The position numbers were made by a program, and so were the translations under genes. DNA of 64,000 bases from Acholoe squamosa (lineage: Eukaryota; Annelida; Polychaeta; Phyllodocida; Polynoidae): the NCBI GenBank assembly GCA_949317995.1, contig OX439045.1, positions 7,311,674-7,375,673 of the forward strand, given 5' to 3'. Shown here piece after piece: positions 39,646-64,000 of the stretch (positions within the stretch are counted from its first letter, which is position 1; each line of letters begins with the position of its first letter). The notes beneath the pieces were generated by a model. The model saw nothing but the letters and a program-made list of their open reading frames with translations, ran no database searches and was not told the DNA's origin.

Positions 39646-40416
39646 CTAAGATGCAGGTAAGAGAGAGGATTATCCATGCATTCTGATATTTAGAGAATAG
39701 ACAACGATCTTCTTCAGATCAAGACTGTCAGATGCATTTGTGCATTATAGGACAACAGGCAGTTGAGATGTGAAGAAGGAGTTGTCTATTGTCTTTATAA
39801 AAGGTTGTACATTTCATTCCAATCACTTAAGTACCCGATTAAGGTATGTCTAGACCAATTAATGGCTACACTCCAGTAGTATGACATGTATGATTAGTGC
39901 TTCATGTATACATGACCCTTACATGTTTAATGATGGTTTAGAATAATAATAATAAAAAAGACAACTACTGAAGCAAATTCCCAGTATTCCCTAAGTTTGG
40001 GAGATAACCAATGTTTTCACAACATATCCTTAGGACTGCCAGTACTTTCTGTCAGGGCACAACCAAAACGTATTGATGTGGGTAGTAAAAAGGGGGTCTC
40101 AAAATACCAGTACTTTCTGGTGGTTCACTGCCAAAACGTTTTATGTGTAATAGATTTTTCAATTTTTTGGCTACCATACAGTAATAATGTGTATTCAAGG
40201 ATGGATTTCTCTCTATTTTCAATATAATTTCCGGTTAGTAATACACACTATCCAACACTGGTAGTTGCACTCACAATGGAAAAACGTTTTAAAACGTTTT
40301 GGCATCCCTGCTATGAAGAGAGGTATCATGTAAAGCAAAACATTTTGATGTGTATTGTGAAGTAAAATCATACAGCTGTCTGTGTGCCAAAACGTTTTGG
40401 AGTGTTCTGTGGAGAA

Positions 40417-43400
40417 ACATGGTACCAGTACACATCACATGGTGATACATGGTACCAGTACACATCACATGGTGATACATGGTACCAGTACACATCACAT
40501 GGTGATACATGGTACCAGTACACATCACATGGTGACACATGGTACCAGTACACGTCATATGGTGATACATGGTACCAGTACACATCACATGGTGATACAT
40601 GCACCAGTACACATCACATGGTGATACATGGTACCAGTACACATCACATGGTGATACATGACACCAGTACACATCACATGGTGATACATGGTACCAGTAC
40701 ACATCACATGGTGATACATGGTACCAGTACACATCACATGGTGATACATGACACCAGTACACGTCACATTGTGATACATGGTACCAGTACATGTCACATT
40801 GTGATACATGGCACCAGTACACGTCACATTGTGATGGCTGGCACCAGTACACATCACATGGTGATTCCTGGCACCATTACACGTCAGATGGTGATACATA
40901 GTACCAGTACACGTCTCAAGGTGAGACACGGCATGGTACCAGTACATGTGTACCAGTACATGTCACATTGTGATACATGGCACCAGTACACGTCACATTG
41001 TGATGGCTGGCACCAGTACACATCACATGGTGATTCCTGGCACCATTACACGTCAGATGGTGATACATAGTACCAGTACACGTCTCAAGGTGAGACACGG
41101 CAGCAGTACACGTCTCATGGTGGTAACTGTACCAGTACATGTCACATTGTGATACATGGCACCAGTACACGTCACATTGTGATGGCTGGCACCAGTACAC
41201 ATCACATGGTGATTCCTGGCACCATTACACGTCAGATGGTGATACATAGTACCAGTACACGTCTCAAGGTGAGACACGGCAGCAGTACACGTCTCATGGT
41301 GGTAACTGGCACCAGTACACGTCTCATGGTGATACATAGCACCAGTACACGTCCCATGGCGATAACTGGGACCAGTACACGTCACATGGTGATAACTGGC
41401 ACCAGTAGACATCACATGGTGATACATGGCACCAGTACACATCACATGGTGATAACTGGCATCAGTACACATCATATGGTGATAACTGGCACCAGTACAC
41501 ATCACATGGTGATACAAGGCACCAATACACGTCATATGGTGATACATGGTACCAGTACATGTCACATGGTGATACAGGGCACCAGAACAGGTGACATGAT
41601 GATACGTGGCACCAGTACACGTCACATGGTGACACAGGGCACCAGAACAGGTGACATGATGATACATGGCACCAGTACACATCACATGGTGATACATGGC
41701 ACCAGAACAGGTGACATGGTAATACATGGCACCATTACACATCACATGGTGATACAAGGCACCAATACACGTCATATGGTGATACATGGTACCAGTACAC
41801 GTCACATGGTGATACATGACACCAGTACACGTCACATTGTGATACATGGTACCAGTACACATCACATGGTGATACATGGTACCAGTACACATCACATGGT
41901 GATACATGGTACCAGTACACGTCATATGGTGATACATGGTACCAGTACACATCACATGGTGATACATGCACCAGTACACATCATATGGTGATACATGGTA
42001 CCAGTACACTTCACATGGTGATACATGACACCAGTACACGTCACATTGTGATACATGGTACCAGTACACATCACATGGTGATACATGGTACCAGTACATG
42101 TCACATTGTGATACATGGCACCAGTACACGTCACATTGTGATGGCTGGCACCAGTACACATCACATGGTGATTCCTGGCACCATTACACGTCAGATGGTG
42201 ATACATAGTACCAGTACACGTCTCAAGGTGAGACACGGCAGCAGTACACGTCTCATGGTGGTAACTGGCACCAGTACACGTCTCATGGTGATACATAGCA
42301 CCAGTACACGTCCTATGGCGATAACTGGCAGCAGTACACGTCTTAAGGTGAGAAACGGCAGCAGTATATGTCTCATGGTGGTAACTGGCACCAGTACACG
42401 TCTCATGGTGATACATAGCACCAGTACACGTCCCATGGCGATAACTGGCACCAGTACACGTCACATGGTGATAACTGGCACCAGTAGACATCACATGGTG
42501 ATACATGGCACCAGTACACATCACATGGTGATAACTGGCACCAGTACACATCACATGGTGATTCAGGGCAGTAGACATCATCAGTAGATACATGTTACGA
42601 GTACACATCATATGGTGATACCTGGCACCAATACACATCACATGGTGATACATGGTACCAGTACACATCACATGGTGATACTGGGCACCAAAACAGGTGA
42701 CATGATGATACATGGCACCAGTACACGTCACATGGTGATACAGGGCACCAGAACAGGTGACATGGTGATACATGGCACCATTACACATCACATGTTGATA
42801 ACTGGCAGCAATACACATCACATGGTGACATATGGCAACAGTACACATCATATGGTGACATATGGCAACAGTACACATCACATGGTGACATATGGCAACA
42901 GTTCACATCACATGGTGACATATGGCAACAGTACACATCACATGGTGACAAATGGCAGCAATACACATCACATGGTGATTCAGGGCAGTAGACATCATCA
43001 GTAGATACATGTTACGAGTACACATCATATGGTGATACCTGGCACCAGTACACATCACATGGTGATACATGGTACCAGTACACATCACATAGTGATACAT
43101 GGCACCAGTACACATCACATGGTGATACATGGTACCAGTACAGATCACATGGTGACACATGGTACCAGTACACATCACATGGTGATACATGGTACCAGTA
43201 CACATCACATGGTGACACATGGTACCAGTACACATCACATGGTGATACATGGTACCAGTACACATCACATGGTGATGCATGGCACCAGTACACATCACAT
43301 GGTAATACATGGTACCAGTACACGTCACATTGTGATACATGGTACCAGTACATGTCACATGGTTATACATGGTACGAGTACACATCACATGGTGATACAT

Positions 43401-43486
43401 GGTACCAATACACATCACATGGTGATACATGGTACCAGTACACATCACAAGGTGATACATATTGTGACACATGGCACCAGTACACA
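40417..43486. repeat. 30-bp minisatellite, about 102 copies
   Basis: The unit reads ACATGGTACCAGTACACATC followed by ACATGGTGAT. A composite block marked by GTGATGGCTGG, GTGATTCCTGG and GGTGAGACACGGCAG recurs starting near 40831, 41000, 41179 and 42139, showing unequal-exchange amplification of multi-unit segments. Because 30 is divisible by three, long reading frames exist on both strands, but there is no sign of a protein. Confidence 0.97.
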
Positions 43487-54281: not shown

Positions 54282-55393
54282 TTAGAATTTTGGGGAATCA
54301 TTTACGGAGAACTTACCCAAAATTTTGGCCCACCCTATGAGGTGCACCAGGAGTCCATTATCCCGTATAAAAGGTTCATCTATTTTTTGTGCACAGAGTG
54401 CAGTCCTGGAGATGATATTGTCTCGAGTAGCAAAATACTCTTTTAGTTTATACACTACATTGGTCCATGTCAACATATCAGGTGTGGCACTTTCCCTGAA
54501 GGATTCAAACCAAGCTAGTGCTTGTCCTTCAAGGTACTTGGGTAAATATGTAACCATGGTGTCACTGTCAGTTACTTTGTACTTATCCTTCAGATATTCT
54601 GGGAATTTGTGATCAATGAATAATGCTGTTGACATGAGTGGTGATGGGTGAGAAAAAGCTTTGGGTTTTGTTACCTCATGTTGCCTGATCTTTCTGTCGT
54701 CATGTTGTTGTCTGTCTATGAGCTTGGTCACGTTGGACACCATAGAGATGATGTCATCCTTGGATCCAGAGGCAGATGGTGTGACAACAGATGTGGTTGT
54801 GGGTGTGGGAGGCTGGGATGATACCATCTTCATGAGATCTGCTATCTGTTGTTGTTGTCTATCCAGGGCCTTCTGCTGGGTGTCTATCGCCGCATTCCTC
54901 TCTGCCAATTGTTGGCTGAGGATCCTCTCCCTCTCCTCCTGCTGGGACTTGTTGGTCTCTAGGGCAGTAACTGCATCTTGGATGGCCTTCTCATAGGCCC
55001 TAATCTTCTCAGCTGTCTGATTAGGTTGGGGCCTTCATCGGTGTCCATGATGGAGGATGTGGGAGATATGTCTCTGGAGGAGTGGCTGTCAGAGGCCGGT
55101 GCTGGGGTGGAAGATCTAGATGAGGGTGTGGATCCACCCCCTGAGGCAGATCCTTCTTCCCCTGAGGTAGATAGCGTGAGTTGAGCGTCCTGTAGAGATC
55201 CCTGGGAAATGTTGGATCCCTGAGAACTGGTTGTTCCCTGAGTAGACAGGGTGGGTGGTGTGGGGTCTACTGAGTGTGAGTCTGTTGTATTGGAGGCTGA
55301 GTTGCCCCCTGTGGGTCTCCTAGATCTAGGTGGGAGGGAGACCTCTTCAACAGGTCCCTGACTACGTAAGGTCTTTGTGTGTTGTTCTGCCAA
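54282..55393 (-). pseudogene. Retroelement gag-like gene, one frame break, no pol
   Basis: The reading frame runs right to left. The upstream part (55393-54959) is Ser/Thr/Pro-rich and disordered. A change of frame near 55015-55025 leads into a Gln-rich coiled coil (DTQQKALDRQQQQIADLMK). A segment with YLEGQALAWFESFRE and a following W..V...L..YF pattern, typical of retrotransposon Gag capsid (Retrotrans_gag), comes next. The C-terminal Zn knuckle, protease and polymerase are absent. The frame is also open upstream through the heptad repeat at 55420-55745. LTRs were not found. Confidence 0.7.
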
Positions 55394-55419
55394 CTTGACT
55401 GATAAGAACTTGATGTGTG

Positions 55420-55745
55420 GGGAGACCTCACTGACGTGTGGGAGACCTCACTGACGTGTGGGCGACCTCACTGACGGTTTGGGAGACCTCACTGACGTGT
55501 GGGAGACCTCACTGACATGTAGGCGACCTCACTGACATTTTGGGAGACCTCACTGACATTTTGGGAGACCTCACTGACATGTGGGAGACCTCACTGACAT
55601 GTGGGAGACCTCACTGACGTTTTGGGAGACCTCACTGACGTGTGGGTGACCTCACTGATGTTTTGGGAGACCTCACTGACGTGTGGGAGACCTCACTGAT
55701 GTGTGGGAGACCTCACTGACATGTGGGAGACCTCACTGGTGACCT
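55420..55745. repeat. 20/21-bp tandem repeat (about 16 units), VSEVSxx heptad on the minus strand
   Basis: Units GTGTGGGAGACCTCACTGAC (20 bp) and GTTTTGGGAGACCTCACTGAC (21 bp, written here as GTTTTGGGAGAC + CTCACTGAC). The 21-bp form encodes VSEVSQN on the minus strand in frame with the gag-like gene; the 20-bp forms break that frame. Confidence 0.9.
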
Positions 55746-56987: not shown

Positions 56988-57203
56988 TTAGACCCTTAAA
57001 AGCATTATATTATGCAGTGGACCATGAGGTTGGTTCCTTTGGTGATGTAACTTATGTATATTTGATATATCTGGTGTTCCAATGTAAAAAAATCCATGGG
57101 CAGCGAGTTTCTCTACCAAAGGTTGGTTCTTAGGCCATGTGAAATCGTTGAAAGTGCTGATTCTCTTGGATAAATCGGTGAAAAGTGCGTACTTGGGCAC
57201 CAT
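56988..57203 (-). pseudogene. Truncated BIR (inhibitor-of-apoptosis) domain ORF
   Basis: From ATG at 57203 (complement) it encodes 71 residues. SKRISTFNDFTWPKNQPL then KLAAHGFFYIGTPD match the N-terminal half of a BIR domain (Arg-x-x-(S/T)-F, WP, LA..GF.Y.G..D). The zinc-ligand half (CxxC...H...C) is missing and is replaced by unrelated sequence ending at the duplicated GGACCATGAGG segment. It is therefore unlikely to fold as a BIR. From family knowledge, BIR proteins bind caspases or their regulators, and DNA viruses of invertebrates carry them. The open frame extends upstream to 57410 without an ATG. Confidence 0.65.
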
Positions 57204-57545
57204 TTTCTTGACACACGAGGTACGTAGGTAGTAGACTGTAGGTAGGTAGGTAGCCGGGTAGGTAGGTGACGGTAGTGGTGATGCCTGTGTGTCGATTGTG
57301 GATGTATACCAGTGCCGGGCAGGTTTATATAGTGGTGTTAAATTCGCTTTCCAGCTGTTTACTCCCTTTTTTTTGTGTAGCGACTTAAGATTTAGACACC
57401 CATGGTGCACACCTCCTTCATGTAAGCTTACCTCAAACTACAAAGAGCTTTCTCCACCTTGCCTCCGTCTCCGTCTGTCTCGGTTTTCAATGTACCGCAA
57501 TATATATCTGACCACATCACCCCTCCTCATGTGATCCATCAGTAC

Positions 57546-58103
57546 TCAAATGAGTTCATGATGTGTACTGGTGGGTTTAGCTGCCCACTTCTTCAATACT
57601 TTGAAGGCGTGGAGAGATAGATCTTGTTCCGGTTGTTGAGCGATGCTAGTTAGCCTATCAAAATCCAATTCTAAATACATACCCATATCTCGCCACTCCC
57701 TGGATAGAACTTCAGACATGGACATAAAGTACCTCTCCATTAAAAGCGGGTCGGGGTTGTTGTAATCCAGGTTGTGCTCCTTGAAAAAGTTCTGCGTCCC
57801 ATACAACAGGTCTAAGTCGACGAACACTGACATAGGCCACCAAGCTTTGAACATCACCATACACATGTCCTCCGACATCTTGATAATGACCATCAACTCT
57901 AGAACTTCAGAGGGAAGCTCCAAATAGATTCCCAATTTTTTCCAAGATCCAGTTAACTGCCTTTCTATTTCATGAAGCAAATCATCATCATATCCCAAAT
58001 TGTTCTGGTACGGTCCCATAATACAGTGGTCATCCCGTACACTCACTTCACATACGTCAAGAGAGGGAGCCAACGGGGTGGGTTGTTGAGTTTCAAGACT
58101 CAT
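57546..58103 (-). CDS. Predicted protein with two tandem Death-domain-like repeats
   Basis: ATG at 58103 (complement), 185 residues, undisrupted. Residues ~55-100 (ERQLTGSWKKLGIYLELP, with MVIIKMSEDMCMVMFKAWW) and ~130-185 (SREWRDMGMYLELDFDRL, then IAQQPEQDLSLHAFKVLKKW) both follow the Death-fold pattern W(+)xLGxxLxL...I......A...L.xW. The fold is inferred from pattern only. From family knowledge, Death domains join apoptosis and inflammatory complexes, so a virus-borne two-domain copy could act as an adaptor decoy. Its intactness contrasts with the broken neighbours. An in-frame TTG extends the frame to 58178. Confidence 0.6.
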   Translation of the reverse strand: MSLETQQPTPLAPSLDVCEVSVRDDHCIMGPYQNNLGYDDDLLHEIERQLTGSWKKLGIYLELPSEVLELMVIIKMSEDMCMVMFKAWWPMSVFVDLDLLYGTQNFFKEHNLDYNNPDPLLMERYFMSMSEVLSREWRDMGMYLELDFDRLTSIAQQPEQDLSLHAFKVLKKWAAKPTSTHHELI

Positions 58104-58220
58104 ATTGTCTGCAAAATCGTCGAAAGGGGTCGGTAGGCAGGTAGGCAGACAGTGGTGGGTGGTAGGTGCGGTAGTCAAAGTGGTCAGCAGTGATATAGTC
58201 TTTTAAGAGAAATTGATCTT

Positions 58221-58228
58221 TTTATATA
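58221..58228 (-). promoter_or_regulatory. TATA-like box for the Death-domain ORF
   Basis: Minus strand TATATAAA, about 120 bp upstream of the ATG at 58103. Part of a divergent intergenic region. Confidence 0.5.
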
Positions 58229-58729
58229 GGGTGATTTAATCCTATTTACAGTGGGATACTCCCACCATCTTTTGGATCTGTTGACATCAAACAGTAAGAC
58301 ACTGTCACAAGTGTATTTAGTCGGATTACTTTTAAAATCTCATTGAACAAGGCAAAAGGTGTTGTGATAATTACCCTAAGTCTATTTTACAGGTGTAAGG
58401 CGCGGGCATTTAAGCCTATTTTCAGCTGGATACTCTCACCGTTGTGTAGCGACTTATCAGCATGAGCCTTTGGATCTGTTCACATCAAACAGAAGGAGAA
58501 GGGCGGTCGCTCGTTAAGGTATTATGAGATTACCCTCCCCGGTGGGGTGTGTGTAAACGAGATAAGACACTCAGTTTTCTAATCCTGTTTAGACAAACTT
58601 TAATTTGGATCCCCCCTACAGTGGAGGGTTCCTTCCTTTGAGTAAGACACTCTGTGACTATAGGATTAGGGACGTTAATTTTCCCTTTCATCTATTAAAA
58701 CTGTAGTAAAAACCTTATCTCATGAGGCG
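58229..58729. promoter_or_regulatory. Divergent intergenic region with repeated blocks
   Basis: GGATACTC[C/T]CACC and TTTGGATCTGTT[G/C]ACATCAAACAG occur at 58253-58294 and 58428-58492; GTAAGACACT...GTGAC recurs at 58293 and 58642. The block lies between oppositely oriented ORFs and probably contains shared control sites. Confidence 0.5.
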
Positions 58730-58737
58730 TATATAAG
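58730..58737 (+). promoter_or_regulatory. TATA-like box for the Ala-rich ORF
   Basis: TATATAAG 32 bp upstream of the ATG at 58769. Confidence 0.5.
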
Positions 58738-58768
58738 GAAGGGGAAAAATATCTCTACTTCCCTCACC

Positions 58769-59784
58769 ATGAGTAGACGAACACCTCCTAAGCTCCAGCT
58801 TTCAACAAGGAAGACAAAAAGAAGAACCAGGAGTTCTTTGTCTTCTTCTATGGCTGCTGCTGCTGCTGCTGAAGTTGTGGGTGCTCCTGCTGCTGCTTCT
58901 GCAGGTGCTGCTGCTGCTGCTTCTCCTGCTGCTACAGGTGCTACTACCCCTGTTGCAGCTGCTGCTGCTACTGCTGATTATGGTGTTGTTAGACTTGACA
59001 GGCAGGCTTCTTACTGGCCACAACCATTTTATAACCCCGTTCCTACTGTTACCACTACTGGCCACTACCGATGTAAGTCCTGGTCCTGCTGCTGCTGCTG
59101 CTGCTGGCGTTGGTGGTGTTGGTGGTGGTGGTGCTGGTGTTGGTGTTTGTGTTGATGCTGGTGGTGCTGGTGCTGGTGGTGCTGGTGCTGCGCCTGCTCC
59201 TGCAGCTGTTGTCACTACTTGCGCAAACACTGATGGTTACAGTGACACACATTATTATGTTGAGACCCAGAAGGAGCTAGAGGAGGAGGAGGAGGAAAAT
59301 AATGAGGCGGCAGTGGCGGCGGCAGTGGCGGAGGAGGAGGCAGACGATGAGGAAACAGAAACAGAGGAGGAGGAGACGATGCTTTCTCCAGCGGTGGGTC
59401 AAAGAGCACCCGATTTACTCACCACCGCTATCGCGAACTCTCTATCAACCAACGGGTACTGCTATCCACCAGCGGGCACCGACGTCGAGCAGAGTCGGAG
59501 CGAGTTTTTTTTTTACCCCCTTGACTCTTACGACCCACGACGTATGGTTATCTTCTTCTAAGAAGACATGAGATAGCAATGCGGGCCCTCCTCCTGTTGC
59601 TGGTTCTGCTGTTGATTCAGCTCTCACTGATGGTCCTCCCCTTTCTTCTTTGAAACCCTCTACGGGTAAAAAGAGGAGGTTCACCAAAAGTCATAAGGAC
59701 CAGACATCCAAGAAGAAAAAATTGGTAGTCAAAAGTGAACTACCACCACCACTACCAATATTTGACCACGGTCCCAAATAAGAA
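58769..59784 (+). pseudogene. Low-complexity Ala/Gly/Glu-rich, Lys/Arg-rich ORF with frame breaks
   Basis: Starts at ATG 58769 with a basic segment (RRTPPKLQLSTRKTKRRTRS), then poly-Ala. The frame changes near 59070 (GCTGCT repeats) into Gly/Ala-rich and then Glu-rich sequence (ELEEEEEENNEAAVAAAVAE), which stops at 59561. A third open stretch follows at ~59572-59784 with KKRRFTKSHKDQTSKKKK and ends at TAA. The basic, disordered composition would suit a DNA-binding or virion-core protein of the element, but I recognise no family. GCT/GGT repeats may have expanded by slippage. Confidence 0.4.
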
Positions 59785-60058
59785 CGTCACCCACGTGCAC
59801 AGGTACGAAAGCACCAAGAAAACCCCGACACAGGATGGTGTGACTTTTTCCCCCAAGGGGCTAAAAGAGGTAGGTGACAAAAAGGAAATTATCCTTGAAT
59901 TTCTTAACAGCGTTAGGTTAGAACGAGACTGTGAGTAGGTGTGTACTTACTTTGTGTAGATACGATGTGTATATAGATGTACAGGTAGAAATACACAGAC
60001 AGAAAGAAAGTAAGACTACAAACAGACTCCTCGTTTCTCTTCACGTATAAGTAACTCA

Positions 60059-63000
60059 GTGAAAATATATGTGAAAAGTGTTTCAAAATTTTCAAGAGGG
60101 TGTACAATTATGAGAGACACGTTATTCCTAATTTTGTCCTCTGTGCGGCGAAGGAAATTGCAAAAAATCACCTGTCGACGGGAATCTCTGGACAGGGTGA
60201 CTATTCCTCCCATAATACGCGCTATACCACAGGGTGAGGAAATGTTCACCCAAAATTGGCCCACTATACAAACCGGAGTCAGGGTGCACAGGGCTCACGT
60301 GAGCGTAACAAACTTAAGACTACCAACCGGTGAGTTGAGTGACGTTGTAGATACCATGCGTCAGATTCACATCGCGCAAAGATTCAAATACAAAGTGGGC
60401 TTGTCAGTAGGGTTAATATTACAACACAGGGAAAACAGAGACAAACTACGCTACTTTCACGCGTCCCAAAACAATGCAACTCTTTTACAACCCCTCCCCA
60501 CCATAACTAATTCAGAAACTCTGGAAGACTTCCTCTCTCTCATGAAAAACACTATCACTTCTGAAGAAGTACAGAAACTTTGGGACTCTGACACCAAGTG
60601 GAAAGTTCTTTTTCCCACCAATGTGAACATTTGCATTTACATAGGGCCCAGAGAATTTCCCATAGGGGGGAGGGTTACCCAATCGGGTCGGCTGAAAAAA
60701 AGAGGGGGTGTGTAGATTTTCCTGACAGGGACAAGTTATGCGTCTTTCGCTGCATATCCTTTCACTTATACAAGACAGGCAAACACGCTTCAAAATTGTT
60801 ACGTCAGTTCGATGCCACTGCAAAACCCGAAACCTTTCCAGGTGTGACGATGAGTGACTTACCGAGGTTAGAGAGTTTGTTCGACGAACAAATAGCGGTT
60901 TACACCACCCGTAAAGCAAGAGGTCAGAACCTGAAGAACCGAGTCGTCCTGATCAGACTACCTTTAAAAACTTTGACCACCCGAGGTAAAGTAAACATTT
61001 ACCTGTCTGCGAAACACGGTCTACACGTGTCCCTCATGACGGATTTCAATGAATACGCCGGCATCTATGAATGTCCCAAGTGTAAGTTGGCCTTCACAAC
61101 TAAGTTCACAGGAACCAGCTTTCCGATTGCAGACAAGTGACCTTGAAGTACGTAGGTGGAATCTACCAGAATTCGAAAACGATTTTCAAAGCGCCAGGAG
61201 ATTTTTCCATTTTTCCTCCCAACGGTTGTTCGAGAATGTACCCATACAAAATCGCCTTCGATTTCGAAGCTTTCTTCAGACCGACCCAACAACCGTCAAC
61301 CGATCAAGTGACAGTCCGGTGGGAACACGCACCTCTGACGGCTAGCGTCGCATCCGACTTTCCAGGACACAAAGGTCCAGTGTCCTTTTTGAGAGAGTCT
61401 GACGCCAATTCCAACCCCTTGTTGAATAGAGTTTTGAATTACATCAACAACATCAGCAAGGGAAGAAACGCTGAAACTTTACCGACCGACATTAGCAAAG
61501 TTAGACGAGGAGGCGTCATTGAGTCCTTCTGGCAGCTTTTCTTTCGCTCAAACTCGGGAAAAGCACCCTTTAGTCCAACTGAAGAAGAGACTTCTGAGAT
61601 ATCTCTGGCAAGTTCCGGTCGTAGGTTTCAACTCGGGGCGTTACGACTTAAATCTGATCAAAGTACAGCTTCACTCGTTCTTCTCCTCCAAAGACCGAAA
61701 GAACGAAGAATTCAGCTTCATAAAAAGAAGTAACCAATACTTGGCGATTTACACTCGGCACACTGTTTTCTTGGACGTAGTAAACTATTTGGTTATAACT
61801 ACGCGAATTACCAGAGATGAGCACAAAGGTCACTTTCCTTACGAATGGATGATGTCTACCAGGAAACTGGAAAACAGAACTGTTCCACCGAGGTCTGCTT
61901 TCGACAGCAAACTGACCGGCACCAAGATGTCTGAATCTGACTACGCCAAATGTGAAAAAAGTTTGGTCCGACGAAAAGATGCAAACTTTCAGAGATTACT
62001 TGATCTACTACAACAACAAAGAGGTGAAACCCTTCATAGAGGCACTGAATAATCACGCTAAATTTTTCAAGGATTGCAACATCGACATGTTCAAAGACGG
62101 CAACTCCCTTCTGGGTTTGACTTTACGGTTCCTTTTTCAAAGCACAGAAACTCTGTTCGTAACCTTTCACCAGTTCGACTCCATTCTCTGATAAAAAAAA
62201 ATCTGGTCGGGGGACCTTCCATAATTTTCCATAGATTTCACGAAAAGGGAACACAAGCTAGGCAAAAAAGCGAGAACGTGCGAGCACAAACTAGGTGTAG
62301 AAGCTAACTCTCTGTACTTGCGGTGCATGAGCGCAGCGCACTGCATAGGTTATTACCTGGTGAGACAACCCAACACCGAGTTCAGACCGAAAATCAGACA
62401 AAGACAGTCTAAGAGCACTTTAGAGTGGCTATGCTACGTGGAGTATGCCCGCCGCGGGGAACTTCGCCACGCCTTCAACGGAGGGGAGGTGTCTCTGGGT
62501 TGCCGAAAAATTCGCGTAGAGGGGTTTCACCCACCCTCTAATACCGTGTTCCAATTTCACGGGTGTTGGTACCACGCTCATGAGTGCATACCACTGCGCA
62601 GATATTTGTGTGCTTCAGACAGGAACAAGAGACGTGAGAGAACAGCTAGAGTAAGCACTTACTTGAAAGCAATAGGTCACAAGTTGATCGTCGTATGGGA
62701 GTGTGAATGGAGGAAAATGAAACGTCAGAATCCGCAGGTTACGAACAACACTGGAGCGTCGACGACTTGAGAGTGCATCGAAACCCCATGACAGAGCGTG
62801 ACATTATATCCTCTGTAAAAAATGGAAAAATATTAGGTTTGATTCCGGTGGACATTACCACCCCGCCTCTCCTACGTGAATACTTAGAGGAAATGACTCC
62901 TATATTCCAGAACGTGACCATTTCGAAATCTGACATAAGAACTCACATGTCAGACTTTGCAAACAAAGAAAACGTGTTGAACGCTCCTCAAAGATCCTTG

Positions 63001-64000
63001 ATAGATAGTTACCATGGAAAAAAATTCTCTTGGGAACACCTCTCCATAAGTGGTATCTGGATCACTGTTTGACAGGGACCAAGGTGAACATGTTGATAGA
63101 ATACTTTCCTAGACGACCCTTCGCCGATTTCTCAGACGAAGTAACCGCGGCGCGAAGACATGGAGATGTAAACGCAGAGGGGCAAATTCTCTCAGACTGT
63201 TACAAGTTAATGGGGAACAGTGCGTACGGTAAAACAATTTGCAACAAAGGAAAACACACCACAGTTAAATACTCTAGCGGTCGAAACTTCGAATTATTGA
63301 CCAATTCCTGGCAATTCAAAAAGGGTGCCGAGTTGACCCCAGATCGCTTTGAAGTCAAACTGCAACCGAAAACAGTTAAGAACAACCTCCCTCTTCAAAT
63401 AGGGTTCATGGTGTACTAGTACACCAAGTTGAAAATGTTCACGTTCACGTTCGACTTTCTGGATAAATTTATCGATCAGCACGATTGCGCTCTTTGTCGA
63501 ATGGACACCGACAGTCTTTACATGGCCTCAGCAGGAAAACGTTCGACAAACTTGTGAAAGCTGACCTGAGAGAGTCGTACTTCAGCGAGAAGCGAAACTG
63601 GATCCCGACAGTGGTGTGTGATGATCACTTAGATGCTTTCATGAAAACAAAAACCGAAGGTGTGAAAGAATGGGTCCCCCTTGCTTGTTGTCAGAGTCGT
63701 TATGTTCATGACAAAAAAACTTCCGGTCTTTTCAAATCCGAGTGGGAGGGTGACGGAATTCTAAGTCTCAACTCCAAGACTTACATTTGCTACGACAAAG
63801 ACTCGGTAGGTGAAAGAAAATAAAAAAATGGAGTGCAAAAGGTGTCATGAAAAAAACAAAATGTTCAAGAACCCAAAGACTTCTTGGATGTTCTTTTAAA
63901 TAAAAAAACTATCCATACTCTTAACACAAATTTCAAAGTAATAGAAAACTAAATGCACACTTACACTATAGAGAAAAAGGGTCTGAGTTACTTATATGTG
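60059..64000 (+). pseudogene. Protein-primed family B DNA polymerase, Polinton/adintovirus type, frame-broken and cut by the window end
   Basis: Recognisable blocks in order: an N-terminal region with YFHASQNNATLL (~60450); Zn-like ECPKC (~61069); YVGGIYQ and exonuclease motif I FDFEAFF (D 61260, E 61266); Exo II VGFNSGRYDLN (~61617); YYNNKEVKPF (~62007); FQFHGCWYHAHEC (~62550); VKNGKILGLIPVDI (~62815); polymerase motif YKLMGNSAYGKT (63201-63236); catalytic MDTDSLYM (63501-63524); GLFKSEWEGDGI (~63727) and a C-terminal block up to 64000. Breaks: frame changes near 60700, 61110, 61540, 61955, 62195, 62300, 62740, 63020, 63540 and 63830, and a TAG at 63417-63419. The family is that of Polintons/Mavericks and adintoviruses. 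No integrase, capsid or ATPase gene lies inside the window. Confidence 0.92.

What the first reader, a model, noticed from the sequence alone, without database searches (positions are those of the whole stretch)
56988..64000. Virus-like element pairing a Polinton/adintovirus polymerase with Death-domain and BIR genes
Within 7 kb there is a protein-primed PolB, a divergent Ala-rich basic ORF, an intact ORF with two Death-domain-like repeats and a truncated BIR domain, with TATA-like boxes in a shared divergent control region. Large DNA viruses are known to carry anti-apoptotic genes. A mid-size element holding both a Death-fold adaptor and an IAP fragment next to PolB would be a compact cell-death-control cassette and may be undescribed. 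That the ORFs belong to one element is inferred from proximity and orientation.
Basis: partly seen in the sequence, partly recalled or inferred. Interest (0 to 1): 0.88.

Follow-up and report, generated by a model that had tools for sequence, protein, structure and literature searches.

The report
Mini-Polinton carrying paired cell-death genes
The window holds a broken copy of a virus-like jumping element of about 10 kb, repeated through an animal genome, that pairs its own DNA-polymerase gene with two genes resembling cell-death regulators (a FADD-like adaptor and an inhibitor-of-apoptosis domain), which suggests that it keeps host cells alive while it copies itself.

Summary
The genes are there, and that they belong to one element is now shown. 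In the host genome (1.48 Gb; capped lists of 150 places per gene), 49 of 150 Death copies have BIR within 3 kb, all 49 downstream on the same strand (random mean 0.11); 25 have the polymerase within 8 kb, 24 of them divergent (random mean 0.26). Two copies followed to both ends measure 10,535 and 9,528 bp, with AGTAGT...ACTACT ends and 6-bp flank repeats (6/6 and 5/6 letters): Polinton-style integration, yet no integrase or capsid match in 17 ORFs scanned and no gap above about 1.7 kb for one. The window copy is dead: polymerase split among frames, BIR halved, Death ORF lacking 14 internal residues and its last helices. Relatives have stop-free Death frames and complete BIR domains. The Death family's best solved-structure match by sequence profile is FADD (E 5e-7); the predicted fold found no match. 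The polymerase is named by motifs and weak profiles; none passes a cut-off. Likely function, inferred: blocking death signalling while the element replicates. Ten searches of an open-access library found no description; the main adintovirus paper was not held.

The parts
57078..57203 (-). BIR gene remnant: first half of a BIR domain; element homology stops at about 57078
   Evidence: PF00653 24.1 bits, positions 1-35 of 70; no second half found by motif scan of the window; homology end; complete BIR in relatives, E 1e-17 to 4e-17
57325..57331 (-). TATA-like box upstream of the BIR gene
   Evidence: consensus match, function not tested
57441..57545 (-). cut-off C-terminal piece of the Death gene (35 codons after the premature stop)
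   Evidence: BLASTP to P0001, 15 of 29 identical, E 1e-8
57546..58103 (-). tandem Death-domain (FADD-like) gene, 185 codons left; 14 internal residues and the C-terminus missing
   Evidence: family profile matches FADD E 5e-7
58104..58768 (.). divergent control region with a TATA-like box at 58228(-) and one at 58730(+)
   Evidence: the same divergent layout in 24 of 25 Death-polymerase pairs
58769..59561 (+). Ala-rich/acidic ORF broken over two frames, upstream of and on the same strand as the polymerase
   Evidence: the acidic end matches 8 of 20 upstream stretches (L034, L036, L037, L038, L040, L041, L042 and, in L019, the same place as L034; one search lists 7 stretches)
59735..59938 (+). 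coding piece between the Ala-rich ORF and the polymerase, conserved in other copies
   Evidence: tblastn 53-70% identity in 8 of 20 upstream stretches
60059..63823 (+). B-family DNA-polymerase gene, broken into nine overlapping frame pieces
   Evidence: N-terminal C2H2-like motif in another frame at 60070-60144
63819..63824 (+). polyadenylation-like AATAAA at the end of the polymerase gene
63825..64000 (+). element continues past the window: small ORF X, then the right inverted repeat, ending ...TACTATACTACT at G000:C11:7377411, which would be window position 65738
   Evidence: L044

Best explanation
The stretch from about 57078 to 64000, running on to about 65738 outside the window, is a decayed copy of a Polinton/Maverick-derived element of about 10 kb. 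Layout: inverted repeat, BIR gene, tandem Death-domain gene, divergent promoters, Ala-rich/acidic coding stretch and DNA polymerase, small ORF X, inverted repeat. Shown: the parts, their recurrence in this order and orientation, terminal repeats, flank repeats, decay of this copy. Inferred: the element replicated with its own polymerase, was integrated by an integrase supplied by another element, and used two proteins against host cell death: a FADD-like adaptor without a caspase, acting as a decoy that caps death-receptor or caspase-8-type assemblies, and a single-BIR protein that binds caspases or IAP antagonists.
For: Own-genome searches: at least 150 places each for Death, polymerase and BIR. 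Co-localisation: Death-BIR 49 of 150, all same strand and downstream, median start distance 712 bp, random mean 0.11, maximum 3 in 1000; Death-polymerase 25 of 150, 24 divergent, random mean 0.26, maximum 4; BIR-polymerase 32 of 150, 31 opposite strand, random mean 0.30; 11 triads. Letters: polymerase core pieces in 8 of 20 upstream stretches; BIR within 1.5 kb in 10 of 20 Death loci. Termini: C18 copy 10,535 bp flanked by GAATAC on both sides, arms 89% alike over 742 columns; C2 copy 9,528 bp flanked by CTCCAC and CTCAAC. Mobility: L005-L008 are 99.2-99.7% identical from a sharp AGTAGT end and have different flanks. Selection: Death dN/dS 0.14-0.16 between two type B subfamilies, 0.35-0.60 within type A. 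FADD match E 5e-7.
Against: No functional data. No polymerase piece passes a curated profile cut-off, and three solved-structure searches gave nothing relevant. The predicted Death model (pLDDT 74, pTM 0.48) has twelve helices but no structural match. 12 of 20 upstream stretches show no polymerase core piece, including L031 and L033, whose Death regions are window-like. Of 150 Death copies 87 have neither gene listed nearby, which the capped lists may explain. Type A dN/dS of 0.35-0.60 is only moderate. CpG content is higher in the element (polymerase 0.92, Death 0.53) than the mean of 54 background windows (0.32), but 9 of those 54 also reach 0.5, maximum 0.97. In the L009 type the BIR gene lies on the other side of Death, divergent (3 of 10 BIR-bearing loci).
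Confidence: 0.72

Rival explanations
1. The Death and BIR genes are ordinary host immune genes, spread as retrocopies or tandem duplicates, that happen to lie beside polymerase fossils.
For: Molluscs have expanded and partly intronless IAP families, and oyster IAPs with death-domain architecture are described (passages of PMC8917759). Intronless copies fit retroposition.
Against: Strict co-orientation and spacing with each other and the polymerase far beyond random placement; in C18 and C2 both genes lie inside the inverted repeats and flank repeats; four near-identical L005-L008 copies share a sharp AGTAGT end.
Confidence: 0.05
2. The 10-kb elements are internally deleted, non-autonomous remains of a full virus-like Polinton/adintovirus that also has integrase, ATPase and capsid genes; the Death-BIR pair is ordinary virus cargo.
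For: A second lineage (type B) in the same genome has a Death gene, then a 1856-aa polymerase-like ORF and a 234-aa ORF with a P-loop motif. Polintons normally carry integrase and capsid genes (recalled).
Against: Four independent window-type copies have only a small ORF between polymerase and the terminal repeat region (L044, L046, L049, L051), so the short layout is the amplified form. A fuller window-type copy was not seen, but was not systematically sought either.
Confidence: 0.4
3. The Death gene is pro-death: a toxin-like or defence function that kills infected cells, with the BIR gene as its counterpart.
For: A FADD-like adaptor can promote caspase activation (general knowledge); the two genes are adjacent and co-oriented, as a paired system would be.
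Against: No caspase or other effector was found in the ORFs scanned. 101 of 150 listed Death copies have no listed BIR gene within 3 kb, including stop-free ones without a BIR match within 1.5 kb (L004-L008, L012-L015), which does not fit an obligate antidote.
Confidence: 0.1

Closest known systems
Maverick/Polinton elements
   Same: Polymerase-like gene with B-family motifs, AGT-type termini, inverted repeats of about 0.7 kb, 6-bp flank repeats (definitions recalled)
   Different: About 10 kb; no integrase, capsid, ATPase or protease match in the window-type copies examined; carries a Death-BIR pair
Adintoviruses (passages of PMC11071296 seen; founding paper not held)
   Same: Animal-associated, polymerase gene, integrated DNA
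   Different: [quoted passage not shown] none of these was found here, and the words death, apoptosis and IAP do not occur in it
FADD, animal death-receptor adaptor
   Same: Two death-fold modules in 214-242 aa; best solved-structure match of the family profile, E 5e-7, running from the end of domain 1 through domain 2
   Different: Pfam sees two Death stretches rather than a death-effector plus a Death domain; intronless; multi-copy in mobile elements
Single-BIR inhibitor-of-apoptosis proteins of viruses and animals
   Same: Complete BIR domains in relatives, E 1e-17 to 4e-17
   Different: Pfam reports no RING domain in the four relatives scanned; always found here in a mobile element context when paired with Death
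Viral death-fold decoys such as vFLIPs (recalled)
   Same: A virus-type element encoding a death-fold protein without an effector
   Different: Two Death domains rather than two death-effector domains; different kind of element

Membership tests
Maverick/Polinton | B-family, protein-primed type DNA polymerase | tested here: inconclusive
   Motifs NSAYGKT and DTDS, DNA_pol_B_2 E 0.051, PHROG DNA polymerase E 0.048, all under cut-off; no solved-structure match
Maverick/Polinton | Terminal inverted repeats starting AGT | tested here: met
   AGTAGTATAGTATG at both ends of C18, similar at both ends of C2; arms 89% alike in C18
Maverick/Polinton | 6-bp target-site duplication | tested here: met
   C18 GAATAC/GAATAC; C2 CTCCAC/CTCAAC, 5 of 6; not testable for the window copy, whose left end is lost
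Maverick/Polinton | Retrovirus-like integrase gene | tested here: not met
   No Pfam match in 17 window-type ORFs scanned; no unassigned stretch above about 1.7 kb in C18; larger copies not surveyed
Maverick/Polinton | Capsid, packaging ATPase and protease genes | tested here: not met
   Not found in window-type copies (same calls). Type B has a P-loop ORF, best Pfam E 0.0064, under cut-off
Adintovirus | Hexon, chromodomain integrase and OTU-like PolB N-terminus | tested here: inconclusive
   No Pfam match in the ORFs scanned; broken frames and no adintovirus reference held
Death-domain superfamily | Pfam Death above the curated cut-off | tested here: met
   All six relatives, 41.6-62.5 bits against 22.6; the decayed window copy reaches 20.5
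FADD | Death-effector domain followed by Death domain | tested here: inconclusive
   Profile match to FADD covers the end of its DED and its DD; Pfam calls both modules Death; fold search without match
IAP/BIR proteins | Complete zinc-binding BIR domain | tested here: met
   Complete in relatives L009, L018, L021, L023; only half in the window copy

The most novel reading that the evidence does not exclude
A capsid-less and integrase-less Polinton replicon: an amplified family of elements of about 10 kb whose whole gene set is a polymerase, one small unknown ORF and a two-gene cell-death shield (FADD-like decoy plus single-BIR protein), moved by integrase from larger relatives. It would be a selfish replicon that invests in host-cell survival rather than in particles.
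Probability: 0.45. Interest if true: 0.88.

Novelty: new variant of a known kind. Interest (0 to 1): 0.77.

Why it matters
It gives a concrete, multi-copy case of a Polinton-type animal element carrying a paired death-fold and IAP cassette. That links mobile elements to the repeated spread of apoptosis genes in invertebrate genomes and makes a test possible: some multi-copy intronless Death or BIR genes annotated as host immune genes may be element cargo. The short layout also raises the question of what selects for a cell-survival cassette in an element that seems to lack particles of its own.
Full report
What was checked. The 7-kb end of the window holds, on the minus strand, a half BIR gene (56988-57203) and a 185-codon Death ORF (57546-58103) and, on the plus strand, an Ala-rich/acidic ORF and nine overlapping pieces of a polymerase-like gene (58769-63823). 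Profiles give BIR 24.1 bits (cut-off 22.9) over its first half only, Death 20.5 bits (cut-off 22.6), and for the polymerase only sub-threshold matches (DNA_pol_B_2 E 0.051; a PHROG DNA polymerase E 0.048). The window's left part is a mucin-like repeat region.

The Death family is real. One public protein was found with the window ORF (56% identity, E 5e-49), and six with the two-sequence profile. All six pass the Pfam Death cut-off (41.6-62.5 bits) with two stretches each; the two domains align to each other (E 2.9e-8). Against solved structures the family profile matches FADD best: five FADD sequences at E 5e-7 to 6.9e-7, then ankyrin and RIPK1 Death domains. The match runs from the end of domain 1, where family HRQDLL aligns with FADD RRHDLL, through domain 2; that RxDL is a death-effector hallmark is recalled. 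The model of P0003 has twelve helices but modest confidence and no structural match.

The window copy is decayed. Fourteen internal columns present in all six relatives are missing. After the stop the reading frame continues with 35 codons similar to the relative's C-terminus (E 1e-8). The polymerase is split among frames, while eight of nine pieces fall in order on one 1856-aa ORF elsewhere. Homology with other copies stops at 57078, in the middle of the BIR domain.

It is a dispersed element. The host assembly has 1.48 Gb in 63 contigs. Searches returned capped lists of 150 places each for Death (2130 first-look candidates), polymerase (2036) and BIR (1075). From the listed coordinates: 49 of 150 Death copies have BIR within 3 kb, all 49 same strand and downstream; 25 of 150 have polymerase within 8 kb, 24 divergent; 32 of 150 BIR copies have polymerase within 9 kb, 31 on the opposite strand; 11 complete triads. 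Random placement gave means of 0.11, 0.26 and 0.30 (contig lengths were approximated by the largest coordinate seen). 87 of 150 Death copies had neither neighbour in the capped lists.

Letters of copies. Of the 20 best Death loci, 10 have a BIR match within 1.5 kb: 7 downstream on the same strand and 3 (L009, L010, L011) upstream and divergent. Four BIR ORFs scanned give complete domains, E 1e-17 to 4e-17. Of 20 upstream stretches of about 6.5 kb, 8 hold polymerase core pieces, one more holds only the upstream coding pieces, and 11 show no polymerase-side match, one of these with BIR. 15 of 20 Death loci are stop-free over the aligned part; dN/dS is 0.14-0.16 between two type B subfamilies, 0.35-0.60 within type A, and saturated otherwise.

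Ends. L005-L008 are 99.2-99.7% alike from a sharp AGTAGT boundary and have different flanks. Window-type copies end ...TACTATACTACT on both outer sides. The C18 copy spans 10,535 bp with GAATAC on both sides; its arms are 89% alike over 742 columns. The C2 copy spans 9,528 bp with CTCCAC and CTCAAC. The window copy's right end lies at G000:C11:7377411, window position 65738. In the C11 copy the BIR-side terminus was not found, and L049 lacks the ACT end.

Gene content. Between the repeats the window-type copies hold BIR, Death, the Ala-rich/acidic stretch, polymerase and ORF X. 17 ORFs from window-type stretches gave no integrase or capsid match in Pfam (the BIR ORF of L050 matched BIR as expected), and the largest unassigned gap in C18 is about 1.7 kb. 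A second lineage, type B, has Death near its AGTAGT end, then the 1856-aa polymerase-like ORF with C2H2 motifs and a NADAR-like end (E 3.7e-6, under cut-off), then a P-loop ORF. I did not follow type B to its other end.

Mechanism. Shown: anatomy, recurrence, mobility, decay. Inferred: replication by the element's polymerase, integration by an enzyme from elsewhere, and a two-part block of cell death. The FADD-like protein has adaptor modules without a caspase, as a decoy would; the BIR protein could bind caspases or IAP antagonists. The opposite sign of action is not excluded.

Literature. Ten searches of an open-access library found no description of such a cassette; the adintovirus founding paper was not held. 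Host identity was not determined.

Noticed in passing
window 884-34102, +: Mucin-like host gene region: repeated MPTTTTKMPTTTKTT blocks alternating with a conserved domain of about 170 aa (CAPGQPPVWIMDSTK...), with strong strand skew; no Pfam match for two of its unique ORFs.
   Followed up: partly
L045 1210-6777, G000:C3: The type B polymerase-like ORF of 1856 aa ends in a NADAR-like domain (PF08719 E 3.7e-6, under cut-off; PHROG 1017 E 2.6e-8), a possible polymerase-NADAR fusion.
   Followed up: partly
L009, L010, L011: Third arrangement: the BIR gene lies upstream of Death on the opposite strand, so the pairing recurs in another order.
   Followed up: partly
L046 5920-8854, minus strand, G000:C18: A second, more distant polymerase fossil (KLLGNGSYGKT...DTDS) a few kb from the C18 copy.
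   Followed up: no
window 54282-55034, minus strand: Ty3-like gag fragment (Ty3_capsid E 1.7e-4, under cut-off) beside a 20-bp tandem repeat at 55411-55738.
   Followed up: no
window 40410-43460: 3-kb array of a 30-bp tandem repeat, about 101 copies.
   Followed up: no
L051 2928-6548, G000:C11: Reverse-transcriptase-like ORFs lie just beyond the right end of the C11 copy (judged by eye, not by profile).
   Followed up: no
L044 280-942, L046 220-925, L051 8570-9367: Conserved small ORF X between the polymerase and the terminal repeat, without a Pfam match.
   Followed up: partly
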